The notes under the pieces: model-generated | Told to the model about the DNA's origin: nothing | What the model saw: the letters and a program-made list of their open reading frames with translations, nothing else | The model's database searches: none | Source of the DNA: Thermoleophilum album | Lineage (GTDB): Bacteria > Actinomycetota > Thermoleophilia > Solirubrobacterales > Thermoleophilaceae | Direction: 5' to 3' | NCBI RefSeq assembly: GCF_028867705.1 | Contig: NZ_CP066171.1 | Span: 620,001 to 684,000, forward strand | Length of the DNA stretch: 64,000 nucleotides | Made by a program: the position numbers and the translations under genes | In this document: positions 2,845 through 7,234 of the stretch, piece by piece | How positions within the stretch are numbered: position 1 is the stretch's first letter | How the letters are laid out: each line of letters opens with the position of its first letter

Positions 2845-3201
2845 ATGCCGCGTTACGCGAGCTTCTTGGTGCTGGCGCTGGTCGCGCTCGCGCTGGCGGT
2901 CGTGCCGTCGGGCGGGCGGCTGATCGACGTCGCCGGCACCGCGGTCGCGTTCGCTTTCTTCGCTGCCGTCGGTTACGGCGGTGTGCGCCTCTGGGCGCGG
3001 TACCGCGACGAGATCGAGTCGTTGTCGCCGCGGTTGCGGTTGGTGCTGTACGGCTCGCTCGCGTTGGCGGCGTGGGCGCTCGCGGCGGCGGGTCGGCTGC
3101 TGGCAGCGGGCGGCGGTGGGCTGCTTCTGTGGCTGATGCTGCTCGCGCTCGCCTGCTACGGGCTCGTGTGGGTGTGGACCCGCTACCGCACGCTCTCCTG
3201 A
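2845..3201 (+). CDS. Small integral membrane protein, unknown function
   Basis: 118 residues with three or four hydrophobic segments (residues 5-22, 30-48, 70-88 and 92-112). A charged loop, RYRDEIESLSPRLR, separates the second and third. There is no recognisable family motif. Transcription probably starts at its own ATG because of the TAGGCT hexamer 7 nt upstream. It lies between uppP and the pilus-type genes with no clear functional link to either. Confidence 0.6.
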   Translation: MPRYASFLVLALVALALAVVPSGGRLIDVAGTAVAFAFFAAVGYGGVRLWARYRDEIESLSPRLRLVLYGSLALAAWALAAAGRLLAAGGGGLLLWLMLLALACYGLVWVWTRYRTLS

Positions 3202-3327: not shown

Positions 3328-3657
3328 GTGGCCGCGGAGCGCGGACAAGCAGCGATCGAACTGCTCGTGGCTGTGGTGCTGCTAGCCGTGGCGACAGCTG
3401 CCGGCTGGCAGGTAGCGCGCGTCGGTCACGCCGGCGCGACCGCCGCCAACGCCGCCCGTGTCGCTGCGCGCGCCGCGACGGTCGGGAGCGATCCGGTCGT
3501 TGCCGCACGCTCGGCGCTGCCGCGGCGGCTGCGGCGAACGCTGCGCGTACGCGTTCGGCAGGGGCGGGTCGAGCTGCGCGTGACGGTGCCCGTGCTCGGC
3601 GGGATCGGCCGCGTCGCTGTAAGCGGTCGGGCAGCGATGTACGGCGCGCTGCGGTGA
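3328..3657 (+). CDS. TadE-like pilus-assembly protein
   Basis: 109 residues from the GTG at 3328. The N-terminus AAERGQAAIELLVAVVLLAVA is the type III pseudopilin-like TadE signature: a short basic or polar head, GQ(A)xxE, then a hydrophobic helix. The rest is a small extracytoplasmic domain. TadE proteins are minor pilin-like parts of Flp/Tad pili. An in-frame upstream extension to 3214 is possible but lacks the family pattern. The stop overlaps a possible GTG start of the next gene by 4 bp (GTGA). Confidence 0.75.
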   Translation: MAAERGQAAIELLVAVVLLAVATAAGWQVARVGHAGATAANAARVAARAATVGSDPVVAARSALPRRLRRTLRVRVRQGRVELRVTVPVLGGIGRVAVSGRAAMYGALR

Positions 3658-4247
3658 GCTCTGCGCAGACGTCTCGGCTACCCACCCACGAACAGCGCGC
3701 AAGCGGTGGCGACGGCGCGTGCGGCACACGCCCCTGTTGGTGCTGCGCGCCGAGCCTCCGTCACTCGTGCTGCTCGTGTTGTTGGCGCAGCCACCGCTGT
3801 CGCCGCCGCAGCCGCTGCAGCCGCTGCCGCAACTGCCGTGGCGGGGAGGCCGGGGACTACTCGTCGCGGAGCCCGCGGCGAGCGCCGTGGAGCGAGCGGT
3901 TCGCCCGTGCCTGTACGCGCGGGCGCGCAGGTCAGGCGACGGTCGAGGCGCTGGTCGGCGCGTTCGTGTTGATCGCTCTCGCCTTCGCCGCCCTGCAGGG
4001 GTTCTGGCTGTGGCGCGCGCACGTCGCGGCCCACGCCGCCGCGGCCAGCGCTACCGCCGCGTTGGCGCAGGGTGACGATCCGCGACCGGCGCTCGAGCGA
4101 GCGCTGACGCCCGAGCAGCGGAGACGCACGCGTCTCTTCGTGCGCGGGGATTCGGTGGCGGTCACCGTGCGGCTGGCGCGGAGCCTACCCGGGTTGCCGC
4201 GTGCACTGCGCACGGTGAGGGCGCACGCGAGCCTGGAGGGGCCGTGA
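3654..4247 (+). CDS. Second TadE-like protein with doubtful N-terminus
   Basis: The C-terminal 115 residues are convincing: RGRAGQATVEALVGAFVLIA is a TadE-type head and helix, followed by an extracytoplasmic domain. The start is the problem. The only canonical start in this frame is a GTG at 3654, overlapping the previous stop, which would add about 85 residues containing a stretch with roughly twelve cysteines encoded by low-complexity (GCN) DNA. Over 3719-3905 the +2 frame also has strong third-position GC and reads as a hydrophobic, Pro-rich head starting at a GTG. A frameshift, a separate small overlapping gene, or a non-canonical start near 3900 are all possible. Confidence 0.5.
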   Translation: MSSAQTSRLPTHEQRASGGDGACGTRPCWCCAPSLRHSCCSCCWRSHRCRRRSRCSRCRNCRGGEAGDYSSRSPRRAPWSERFARACTRGRAGQATVEALVGAFVLIALAFAALQGFWLWRAHVAAHAAAASATAALAQGDDPRPALERALTPEQRRRTRLFVRGDSVAVTVRLARSLPGLPRALRTVRAHASLEGP

Positions 4248-4314: not shown

Positions 4315-5559
4315 GTGAGCGCCCTCTCGTCCCTACTCCGTGCAGTCGACGATTTCCTGTTCGAGCGGGTGCCGCTGGCGGCGGACGATCGCTCGAGCGG
4401 TGCGGAAGCGCCGGCCGCTACCAACGTCACCGCCACGAACCTCGCTGCAACCGGCGTGACCTCCCGCGTCGCAGAGGGCTCGTCGCTGGACGACGCAAGC
4501 CAGCTGCGGGCGTCGGCGCGCGTACACGGCAGCGGACGCCGCTCCGCCGACCCTGCCGAGCGCCCGGCGAGGTCGCACTCGGGGGCGCGAGCGTTCGAGG
4601 CGGTGCCGACGATGTCGCTAGCCCGGCCCCCGTCTCCCGCAACTTTCCCGGCCAGAGCGGCTCGGGTGCCGCTGGTCGGCGTCATCGCGCTGCGGCAAGG
4701 GGACGGCGCGACGACCGCGGCGCGAGCGTTGGGGCTCGCCATCCGCACCCGGCGCCGTCGGCGAACGCGGGAGCCCCGGGTGGTGGTCGTCGAGCTAGCG
4801 TCGCGCTCGCCCGCGGCACCGCCGGGCGCCGGACGCGCGCCCACAGTACCCACGGAGAACCCGGGCAGCGAGAGTGGGCGGGCTCCCAACGGATCCCTCC
4901 GCGTCGCAGACGTTCGCGGGGCGCTCGGCGGTTCAAGAGCACGCGGTTTGCAGGCGCTGCTCGCCGCGGCAGGTTGCCCGCTGCGGCGGCTCGGGCGCTT
5001 GGCGATCGTCGACCCGCTGTGCGTCTACGAGCTGCACGCCCCCGCGGGCGGGCAACTCTCCGGTGGCCAGCCCGTGGGGGCGCGCTCGGCGGGGGGTGCG
5101 CACTCGCACTCGAAGGCAACCGCGTCCGCGCCCGCGCCACATTCCGAAGCGGCGTTCCTCGCTGCGCTCGGGACGGCTGTGACCCTTGCCGGCGGCAGCG
5201 CGGTAGTCGTCGATCTCGGCTGTCGAGCGCTCGACGAGATCCCGCCCGGGCTCGACGCGCTCGTGCTCGTCGTCGGTGCGACAGCTCCGGCACCTCTTCT
5301 CCGTCTTGCCTTGGCAGCGCTGGCAGCCCGCCCAGGAGGGTGGTACGGACCCAGTTCGCGGCGCCCGCTTGGGTGTGTCGCGCTGCTCGTCCGCGCCGAC
5401 CGCAGCGACCGGTCGGTCAAAGAGATGCCGCCGGTCCCCCACGTACCGTGGCCGCACGCGCCGCTCGCGGCGCGACTAGCCGCGGCGGGGGTCGCGGCTG
5501 GGGCGTTCTCCGCGCCGGCTGCGAGCCTCTGGCGCGAGCTGTTCGGCGAGCCGCGCTGA
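4315..5559 (+). CDS. CpaE/MinD-like protein with altered P-loop
   Basis: 414 residues, GTG start preceded by GGGGAGG. Residues 1-115 are low-complexity and Ala/Ser-rich. From about residue 118, VPLVGVIALRQGDGATTAARALGLAI resembles the deviant Walker A segment of SIMIBI ATPases of the CpaE/TadZ and mycobacterial Ssd type, but the usual lysines are missing (RQGDGATT instead of KGGxGKT). VVVVELASR and SAVVVDLGC may be strand-3 and Walker B remnants. CpaE-like proteins place Tad pili at the pole. Here nucleotide hydrolysis is doubtful. The family call rests on context and one motif. Confidence 0.5.
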   Translation: MSALSSLLRAVDDFLFERVPLAADDRSSGAEAPAATNVTATNLAATGVTSRVAEGSSLDDASQLRASARVHGSGRRSADPAERPARSHSGARAFEAVPTMSLARPPSPATFPARAARVPLVGVIALRQGDGATTAARALGLAIRTRRRRRTREPRVVVVELASRSPAAPPGAGRAPTVPTENPGSESGRAPNGSLRVADVRGALGGSRARGLQALLAAAGCPLRRLGRLAIVDPLCVYELHAPAGGQLSGGQPVGARSAGGAHSHSKATASAPAPHSEAAFLAALGTAVTLAGGSAVVVDLGCRALDEIPPGLDALVLVVGATAPAPLLRLALAALAARPGGWYGPSSRRPLGCVALLVRADRSDRSVKEMPPVPHVPWPHAPLAARLAAAGVAAGAFSAPAASLWRELFGEPR

Positions 5560-5731: not shown

Positions 5732-7234
5732 GTGACGCGGAAACTTTGCGTGATCAGGGCGTGGCACCGTTTTTGCGCGCGCCCCTGCGCCACCCCCGAG
5801 GGGTCGGGAGCGCGCCCCACCCCCGAGGGGGCCGGAGCGCGCTCACGAGCGGCCGCCCTGCGCGCCTGGCGCACCCCGTGGCGGGCAGCGCAAGGACAGG
5901 CGCTGCCTCTCGTGCTCGTCTTCGTCGTGTTGACGAGCGGCTTCGTCCTCGCGCTCGCGGCCGTCGGCGCAGGGCTCACCGGCAAGGGGCGTCTGCAGCG
6001 CGCAGCCGACCTGGCGGCTCTGGCGGCAGGGCAGACAATGGCCCGCAACTACCACCGCTTGTTCGTGGCGCCGACACTTCCAGGCGGTCGCCCGAACCCG
6101 CTGCACCTGAGCGACAGCGCGTACCGCTCGCTGGCAGAGCGCGCGGCCGTGCGCACGGCGCGTGCGAACGGTGCCGAAGGGCACGCGATCGCGGTCGAGT
6201 TCGGAGCCGGTTTCGCACCCACGGCCGTCGCGGTGACCGTTCGGGGCACCGTCGCGACGCCGCTCGATCGACGGCTCGGCCGGTCGCGCCGACCGCGCGC
6301 CCGCGCCCGCGCGGCCGCTGCGATCGTGCCGCCCGCAGCGGTCGCGTCACCGCTCGGTGACCGCGGCAGCGGCGGCGGCTACGACGGGCCGCTCGCCTAC
6401 CGCCAGGGCAAGCCGATGCGCCCTGATGTTGCCGCTGCTTTCGACCGGCTCGCGGCGGCGGCGTGGCGCGAGGCCCGCCTCGCGCTGATCGTCAACAGCG
6501 CCTTCCGCTCCGATGCCGAGCAGGCACGTCTCTACGCTGCCAATCCGAACCCCCGCTGGGTCGCCCCGCCGGGCACCAGCCTCCACCGCTACGCCACCGA
6601 ACTCGACCTCGGTCCACCGGCCGCCTGGACATGGCTGGCCGCAAACGCCCGTCGCTTTGGTTTCATCAAGCGTTACCACTGGGAACCGTGGCACTACGGC
6701 TACGGCCCCAACCCGCGCGACCGCCAGCACCCGGCACAGTACGACCGCGGCTCCTGGGAGCCTCCGGCCGGCGACCACTCGCGCATCCACAGCGGCCTAC
6801 CCGATTTCGTCCCGCCGCGGCTCGTCGCACCGATCGCGCGTGCGGCGCAGCGGTGGAACGTCTCGCCCGCGCTTCTCGCTGCGCAGCTCTACGTCGAGTC
6901 GGGGTTCAACCCGTTCGCTCGCAGCCCCGCGGGAGCGCTCGGCATAGCTCAGTTCATGCCGGCCACCGCGCACGCCTACGGCTTGCGCGACCCCTTCGAC
7001 CCCTGGCAGGCGATCGACGCCCAGGCGCGACTTGTCCGCGACCTGCTCGACCGTTTCGCCGGCAGCGTGCCGCTCGCGCTAGCGGCGTACAACGCCGGCC
7101 CGGCCGTGGTCGAACGCTACGGTGGCATCCCGCCCTACCCCGAGACGCGCGCCTACGTGATGCGTATCCTCGGCGTCCTCGGCGGCGTCGGCGAGGTTGC
7201 GCTCGCGCGGCCGCGGGTCGCGTTAATCGAGTAG
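5732..7234 (+). CDS. TadG-like anchor fused to VanY carboxypeptidase and lytic transglycosylase
   Basis: 500 residues in three parts. Residues 53-100 (GQALPLVLVFVVLTSGFVLALAA, then LQRAADLAALAAGQ) match the membrane head of TadG/Rv3654c-like proteins of Tad clusters. Residues 225-325 are a VanY/DacB-type D,D-carboxypeptidase: SLHRYATELD gives the S-x-H-x(6)-D zinc motif and EPWHYGYG supplies the second His. Residues 365-485 are an SLT (family 1) lytic transglycosylase with catalytic Glu389 in LYVESG, plus GALGIAQFMP and AAYNAGP. The product would be membrane-anchored outside the cell, trimming peptide stems and cutting glycan strands. The N-terminal start (GTG) is uncertain and includes a 27-nt tandem repeat. 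Confidence 0.8.
   Translation: MTRKLCVIRAWHRFCARPCATPEGSGARPTPEGAGARSRAAALRAWRTPWRAAQGQALPLVLVFVVLTSGFVLALAAVGAGLTGKGRLQRAADLAALAAGQTMARNYHRLFVAPTLPGGRPNPLHLSDSAYRSLAERAAVRTARANGAEGHAIAVEFGAGFAPTAVAVTVRGTVATPLDRRLGRSRRPRARARAAAAIVPPAAVASPLGDRGSGGGYDGPLAYRQGKPMRPDVAAAFDRLAAAAWREARLALIVNSAFRSDAEQARLYAANPNPRWVAPPGTSLHRYATELDLGPPAAWTWLAANARRFGFIKRYHWEPWHYGYGPNPRDRQHPAQYDRGSWEPPAGDHSRIHSGLPDFVPPRLVAPIARAAQRWNVSPALLAAQLYVESGFNPFARSPAGALGIAQFMPATAHAYGLRDPFDPWQAIDAQARLVRDLLDRFAGSVPLALAAYNAGPAVVERYGGIPPYPETRAYVMRILGVLGGVGEVALARPRVALIE
5789..5842 (+). repeat. Two tandem 27-nt repeats
   Basis: Two adjacent in-frame 27-nt units encode ATPEGSGAR and PTPEGAGAR near the N-terminus of the TadG-VanY-SLT protein. 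Each contains the self-complementary core CCCCCGAGGGG. They differ at a few positions, which indicates an old duplication. Confidence 0.8.

What the first reader, a model, noticed from the sequence alone, without database searches (positions are those of the whole stretch)
5732..7234. TadG-like membrane anchor fused to VanY carboxypeptidase and lytic transglycosylase in a Tad cluster
One 500-residue protein joins a pilus-cluster membrane head, a D,D-carboxypeptidase (S-x-H-x6-D and WH) and an SLT transglycosylase with its catalytic Glu. Tad pili must cross the thick wall, and the enzymes that open the wall for them are normally separate genes. A single anchored enzyme with two wall-cutting activities inside the pilin gene cluster would be a compact solution, and I do not know of this architecture being described.
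Basis: partly seen in the sequence, partly recalled or inferred. Interest (0 to 1): 0.72.

Follow-up and report, generated by a model that had tools for sequence, protein, structure and literature searches.

The report
Pilus-tip-like protein carrying wall-cutting enzymes
A conserved protein in one class of actinobacteria joins a Tad-pilus minor-pilin-type domain to two cell-wall-cutting enzymes in one chain, which suggests that the pilus brings its own tool for getting through the thick wall; no such enzyme has been reported for Tad pili before.

Summary
Window 5732-7234 (+) is one open frame of 500 aa with a Tad/TadG-type head (PF13400), a VanY M15B peptidase (PF02557) and an SLT lytic transglycosylase (PF01464), all above Pfam's curated cut-offs, with zinc ligands and catalytic Glu intact. 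It is not a one-off: the same three-part protein occurs in about 90 of 249 sampled genomes of its class (two lineages: Solirubrobacterales and one further family), and not in the rest of the phylum sample. Its operon is conserved: 4-TM protein, TadE, TadE, (TadZ-like), fusion. The motor and platform genes (tadABC) lie 160 kb away, and the fusion is the genome's only Tad/TadG-type head above cut-off. It therefore takes the TadG/CpaL place of a split Tad system. In Caulobacter CpaL the pilin-like module carries a vWA domain; here the cargo is two wall enzymes. Best reading: a modular minor pilin, at the pilus tip or base, that opens the cell's own wall for the pilus. Tip position, processing and activity are inferred, and the major pilin was not found. 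A 2025 Tad paper states that no peptidoglycan hydrolase has been reported with Tad pili. New variant of a known kind.

The parts
5732..7234 (+). fusion gene: Tad/TadG-type minor-pilin-like domain + VanY (M15B) + SLT; start GTG 5732 or 5750
5861..6388 (+). N-terminal minor-pilin-type domain: hydrophilic leader, G(-1)-Q(+1), long helix, helix and three strands; PF13400 core at 5894-6034
6416..6706 (+). VanY / M15B metallopeptidase domain (H285, D292, E318, H321)
6833..7126 (+). SLT lytic transglycosylase domain (catalytic E389)
3328..3657 (+). TadE-like minor pilin 1 (G | QAAIE, Glu at +5)
   Evidence: window copy just under the Pfam cut-off, orthologues above it
3900..4247 (+). TadE-like minor pilin 2 (G | QATVE, Glu at +5); start codon not resolved
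4315..5559 (+). possible TadZ/CpaE-like (ParA-type) protein with degenerate P-loop; seen only in the window's order; tentative
   Evidence: no Pfam match in the window copy or in the L089 copy
2845..3201 (+). small 4-TM protein, first conserved member of the operon, function unknown

Best explanation
The protein is the third minor-pilin-like subunit (the TadG/CpaL place) of a Tad pilus whose genes are split over two loci. Its N-terminal pilin-type domain joins the two TadE-like minor pilins in the complex that primes and tips the filament. Instead of the vWA module of CpaL it carries a zinc M15B peptidase that trims stem peptides and an SLT domain that cuts the glycan, so that the priming complex or the growing tip opens a local gap in the cell's own thick wall where the pilus emerges. 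Shown here: one frame, three domains, intact catalytic residues, conserved operon with two TadE-like genes, the genome's only Tad-type head above cut-off, distribution tracking one tadABC lineage, absence of Glu+5. Inferred: processing by prepilin peptidase, entry into the filament, tip position, enzyme activity, and action on the own wall.
For: Domains above cut-off, matched in 26 of 26 (SLT, VanY) and 17 of 26 (Tad) relatives; TIGR03816 matched by 21 of 26. All catalytic residues invariant. Operon TadE-TadE-fusion kept in two lineages. Own genome: the only PF13400 match above cut-off is this protein, and the only TadE-type matches besides noise are its two neighbours, while one tadABC set exists and a prepilin peptidase, so these three are the available minor pilins. 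The fusion co-occurs with the matching TadC lineage: 72 both, 21 fusion only, 4 TadC only, 152 neither; within the order 50/10/3/15. G(-1)Q(+1) kept (G in 24, A in 2; Q in 26) but Glu+5 absent in 26 of 26 while both TadE-like partners have it, the pattern known for tip pseudopilins such as GspK (own knowledge). Literature: CpaL/TadG is a pilin-like domain with a vWA cargo, modelled at the Tad tip with CpaJ and CpaK (PMC12607857, PMC13170226); cargo-bearing 'modular pilins' are common in type IV pili (PMC8179133).
Against: tadABC is not linked to this operon, so the assignment rests on exclusion and co-occurrence, and the co-occurrence is lineage-structured. Several fusion-bearing draft genomes show no tadA/tadC of the right kind. 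No Flp major pilin was found in this genome (none beside tadC). The pilin-type fold had no significant match in the PDB. The VanY part of the model has low confidence. No activity data.
Confidence: 0.52

Rival explanations
1. Stationary wall opener: the head docks the protein beside the Tad machine in the membrane, but it never enters the filament; it clears the wall at the base, like the lytic transglycosylases of secretion systems.
For: Large two-enzyme cargo; the Tad head family is not proven to be processed; lytic transglycosylases are associated with other macromolecular transport systems (reviews cited in PMC12307814).
Against: The head belongs to a minor-pilin-type domain with a conserved G-Q cleavage-like site, and the closest described relative CpaL/TadG is modelled at the tip, TadG having been found in pilus preparations (PMC12607857).
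Confidence: 0.27
2. Tip-borne weapon: the pilus presents the enzymes to neighbouring cells and cuts their wall, as in contact-dependent killing by Tad-like machines.
For: The Myxococcus Kil system is Tad-like, and holes appear in prey peptidoglycan at contact sites (PMC8460266); [quoted passage not shown]
Against: No immunity gene recognised in the operon; kept in most genera of an order not known for predation (own knowledge); the own wall would be met first.
Confidence: 0.08
3. General wall-remodelling enzyme unrelated to pili, whose signal anchor happens to resemble the Tad head.
For: Operon lies far from tadABC and beside uvrC and rapZ; some fusion-bearing drafts lack detected tadA and tadC.
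Against: Tad-specific models match, adjacency to two TadE-like genes in two lineages, co-occurrence with one TadC lineage, and the [GA]-Q head conserved in all 26 aligned relatives.
Confidence: 0.11

Closest known systems
CpaL of Caulobacter / TadG of Aggregatibacter (Tad minor-pilin-like protein with vWA module; PMC12607857, PMC13170226)
   Same: pilin-like N-terminal domain, C-terminal cargo, acts beside two other minor pilins (CpaJ, CpaK; here two TadE-like proteins)
   Different: cargo here is M15B peptidase + SLT instead of vWA; gene unlinked from tadABC; no Glu at +5 (Leu in 20 of 26, Phe in 1)
Modular pilins such as PilB and PilC of Streptococcus sanguinis (PMC8179133)
   Same: functional module grafted onto a pilin for display by a type IV filament
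   Different: those carry adhesion or lectin modules on T4P (IPR012902) pilins; a term search of that survey found no mention of a transglycosylase or of Tad (its datasets were not read)
Rv3654c-family TadE-like proteins of actinobacterial Tad clusters (TIGR03816 / PF13400)
   Same: same head; same place after TadE genes (own knowledge)
   Different: that model is 109 positions long, with no cargo; window protein scores below the TIGR03816 curated cut-off
Specialised lytic transglycosylases of secretion systems and flagella
   Same: SLT domain dedicated to one transenvelope machine
   Different: separate proteins without pilin domain or M15B domain (own knowledge); none reported for Tad pili (PMC12307814)
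VanY / LdcB M15B peptidases
   Same: sequence motifs, zinc ligands and catalytic Glu
   Different: fused, with conserved Glu in the H-R-x-x-T-E-L-D motif where the Ala of S-x-H-x2-G-x-A-x-D is usual; substrate unknown

Membership tests
TadG/CpaL-type Tad minor pilins | Tad/TadG-type head (PF13400) | tested here: met
   25.3 bits against cut-off 22.3; 30.7 in the genome search
TadG/CpaL-type Tad minor pilins | encoded with two TadE/TadF-type minor pilins | tested here: met
   (window copies of TadE are just under the Pfam cut-off; orthologues of the first are above it)
TadG/CpaL-type Tad minor pilins | C-terminal vWA domain | tested here: not met
   no vWA match in Pfam; replaced by VanY + SLT. 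So it is not filed as a vWA TadG, only as taking its place
TadG/CpaL-type Tad minor pilins | pilin-like fold | tested here: inconclusive
   confident model of long helix + helix + three strands, no significant PDB match
TadG/CpaL-type Tad minor pilins | found in the pilus fibre | not testable with these tools
   needs sheared pili and mass spectrometry
Rv3654c family (TIGR03816) | score over the curated cut-off of 50.95 bits | tested here: not met
   19.2 bits in the window protein; 21 of 26 relatives match at E up to 0.001
Complete Tad system in this genome | TadA, TadB, TadC | tested here: met
   unlinked, next to mraZ
Complete Tad system in this genome | Flp major pilin (PF04964) | tested here: not met
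   no match over the cut-off; a Flp-like gene lies beside tadC in one relative of the second lineage
Complete Tad system in this genome | prepilin peptidase | tested here: met
   one A24 peptidase at C1:1210155, in the separate type IV pilus region
Modular pilins as surveyed in PMC8179133 | N-terminal methylation motif IPR012902 (Pfam PF07963) plus extra domain | tested here: not met
   PF07963 not matched by the fusion; works like one, but on a Tad-type head
VanY / M15B peptidases | PF02557 with S-x-H-x6-D and E-x2-H | tested here: met
VanY / M15B peptidases | D,D-carboxypeptidase activity | not testable with these tools
   NCBIfam VanY models far below their cut-offs; several differently named M15 peptidases of the PDB are matched about equally well
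SLT lytic transglycosylases | PF01464 with catalytic Glu and AYNAG motif | tested here: met
   (Z 18.1 to Slt, rmsd 1.9, 136 aligned)

The most novel reading that the evidence does not exclude
A pilus with a built-in wall-cutting tip: the first subunit of the Tad filament carries a peptidase and a lytic transglycosylase and cuts the peptidoglycan as the filament is pushed out, so that motor-driven extension and wall opening are one act.
Probability: 0.35. Interest if true: 0.85.

Novelty: new variant of a known kind. Interest (0 to 1): 0.63.

Why it matters
How Tad pili pass the peptidoglycan is open: PMC12307814 (2025) states that no peptidoglycan hydrolase or lytic transglycosylase has been reported with them. 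Here the link is genetic: the enzymes are in the same chain as the minor-pilin-type domain, across about 90 sampled genomes. That makes the question testable with two point mutations in a cultured Solirubrobacterales strain, and it extends 'modular pilins' from adhesins to wall enzymes.

Tried and rejected
TadA alone could not separate the two Tad lineages of the class by bit score, so TadC was used. Foldseek and VIA-align of the N-terminal domain gave only weak unrelated matches (best VIA-align Z 8.8, rmsd 2.2, 84 aligned, to an inositol monophosphatase; others under 8), taken as uninformative. Profile comparison of the head with the two TadE alignments aligned only 32 and 54 columns, probability 51 and 89%: support for a shared head, not for the whole domain. 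Search for Flp beside tadC or anywhere in the genome failed. Plasmids and viral contigs gave no full-length copy. Sequencing or frame error rejected: intact in dozens of independent genomes. Generic signal anchor rejected as sole explanation.

Full report
What is there. The frame at window 5732-7234 (+) is continuous. Pfam finds, in order, a Tad head (PF13400, residues 55-101), VanY (PF02557, 229-325) and SLT (PF01464, 368-465), each above the curated cut-off. The zinc ligands H285, D292 and H321, the catalytic E318 of the peptidase and E389 of the transglycosylase are present (roles assigned from knowledge of the families), invariant in 26 relatives and kept in four members of a second, more distant lineage. 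The initiation codon is GTG 5732 or 5750; a 27-nt in-frame tandem unit in this leader is double in the window and single in the close relative HRbin41.

Distribution. Near full-length relatives were found in about 45 to 50 of 61 close genomes, in named Solirubrobacterales such as Conexibacter and Solirubrobacter, and, partial copies included, in about 90 of 249 genomes of the class, confined to the window's order and one further family, f5. In 396 genomes spread over the phylum nothing outside those two lineages matched more than the SLT part at the threshold used.

Neighbourhood. The operon is conserved: 4-TM protein, TadE-like 1, TadE-like 2, a degenerate ParA/TadZ-like protein (only in the window's order), the fusion, then in most loci uvrC and rapZ nearby. 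The TadE-like proteins have the class III cleavage motif with Glu at +5. The fusion keeps G (or A) at -1 and Q at +1 but has no Glu at +5 in any of 26 members; lack of this residue is known for the tip pseudopilin GspK (own knowledge), because the top subunit has no partner above it.

The rest of the Tad machine. In this genome tadA, tadB and tadC lie at C1:785932-788991, beside mraZ and rsmH. In other genera of the order tadABC also adjoins mraZ in most loci read, often with an RcpC/CpaB-like gene near; in f5 the order is RcpC-TadZ-TadA-TadB-TadC, with a Flp-like gene in one locus. Own-genome searches show that the fusion is the only PF13400 protein above cut-off and that the two adjacent TadE-like genes are the only other minor-pilin candidates above noise; one prepilin peptidase exists. 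So the split system must use these three, unless its minor pilins are too divergent to detect. A Flp major pilin was not found.

Co-occurrence. With the TadC of this lineage (170 bits or more, one partial match of 164.7 bits also counted) the table over 249 genomes is 72 both, 21 fusion only, 4 TadC only, 152 neither; within the order 50, 10, 3, 15. The counts are not independent, since both traits follow lineages; most sampled genomes of genera g39, g40, g41 and g44 lack both, and one nearly complete f5 genome (G061) also lacks both. At least nine of the 21 fusion-only genomes do have tadA; several others with over 90% completeness have neither detected.

Structure. No PDB match for it is significant, so the pilin fold is plausible but not shown. 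The VanY part was modelled poorly and rests on sequence.

Comparison with the known. CpaL of Caulobacter, the TadG orthologue, is a pilin-like module plus a vWA domain, modelled at the Tad tip with CpaJ and CpaK (PMC12607857; PMC13170226). The present protein has the same place and plan with a different cargo. Grafting modules on pilins is a known strategy (PMC8179133). A 2025 study of the Tad pilus remarks that no peptidoglycan hydrolase or lytic transglycosylase has been reported with it (PMC12307814). Ten searches of the open-access library found no description of this architecture; subscription papers were not searched.

Verdict. Real, conserved, and a new variant of a known kind: a TadG-place modular minor-pilin-type protein with peptidoglycan-cutting cargo. 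Tip position, processing, activity, and the target (own or foreign wall) remain inferences.

Noticed in passing
L128:1-813: A 59-kb IMG/VR contig begins with the Tad head and VanY part of this gene, the frame ending right after the catalytic 'WEAWH', followed by unrelated, possibly phage genes: perhaps a provirus boundary inside the fusion gene.
   Followed up: no
L072:7933-11779 (genome C1:785932-789778): tadABC directly precedes mraZ and rsmH of the division cluster in this genome and lies near them in most other genera of the order read here.
   Followed up: partly
window 5785-5840: 27-nt in-frame tandem unit (CCCCGAGGGG core) in the leader of the fusion gene: two copies here, one in the HRbin41 relative.
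   Followed up: partly
window 6578-6607: In the M15B motif the usual Ala of S-x-H-x2-G-x-A-x-D is an invariant Glu (H-R-x-x-T-E-L-D), which may alter substrate choice.
   Followed up: no
window 4315-5559: ParA/TadZ-like protein without recognisable Pfam match and with a degenerate P-loop, present in the window's order but not in the same place in f5, where a TadZ-like gene sits beside tadA.
   Followed up: partly
G053 C7:565000-584000 (L112): Some genomes of the order carry a second, classical Tad locus (Flp, TadE, TadG-like, RcpC, TadZ, TadABC) next to the split one.
   Followed up: no
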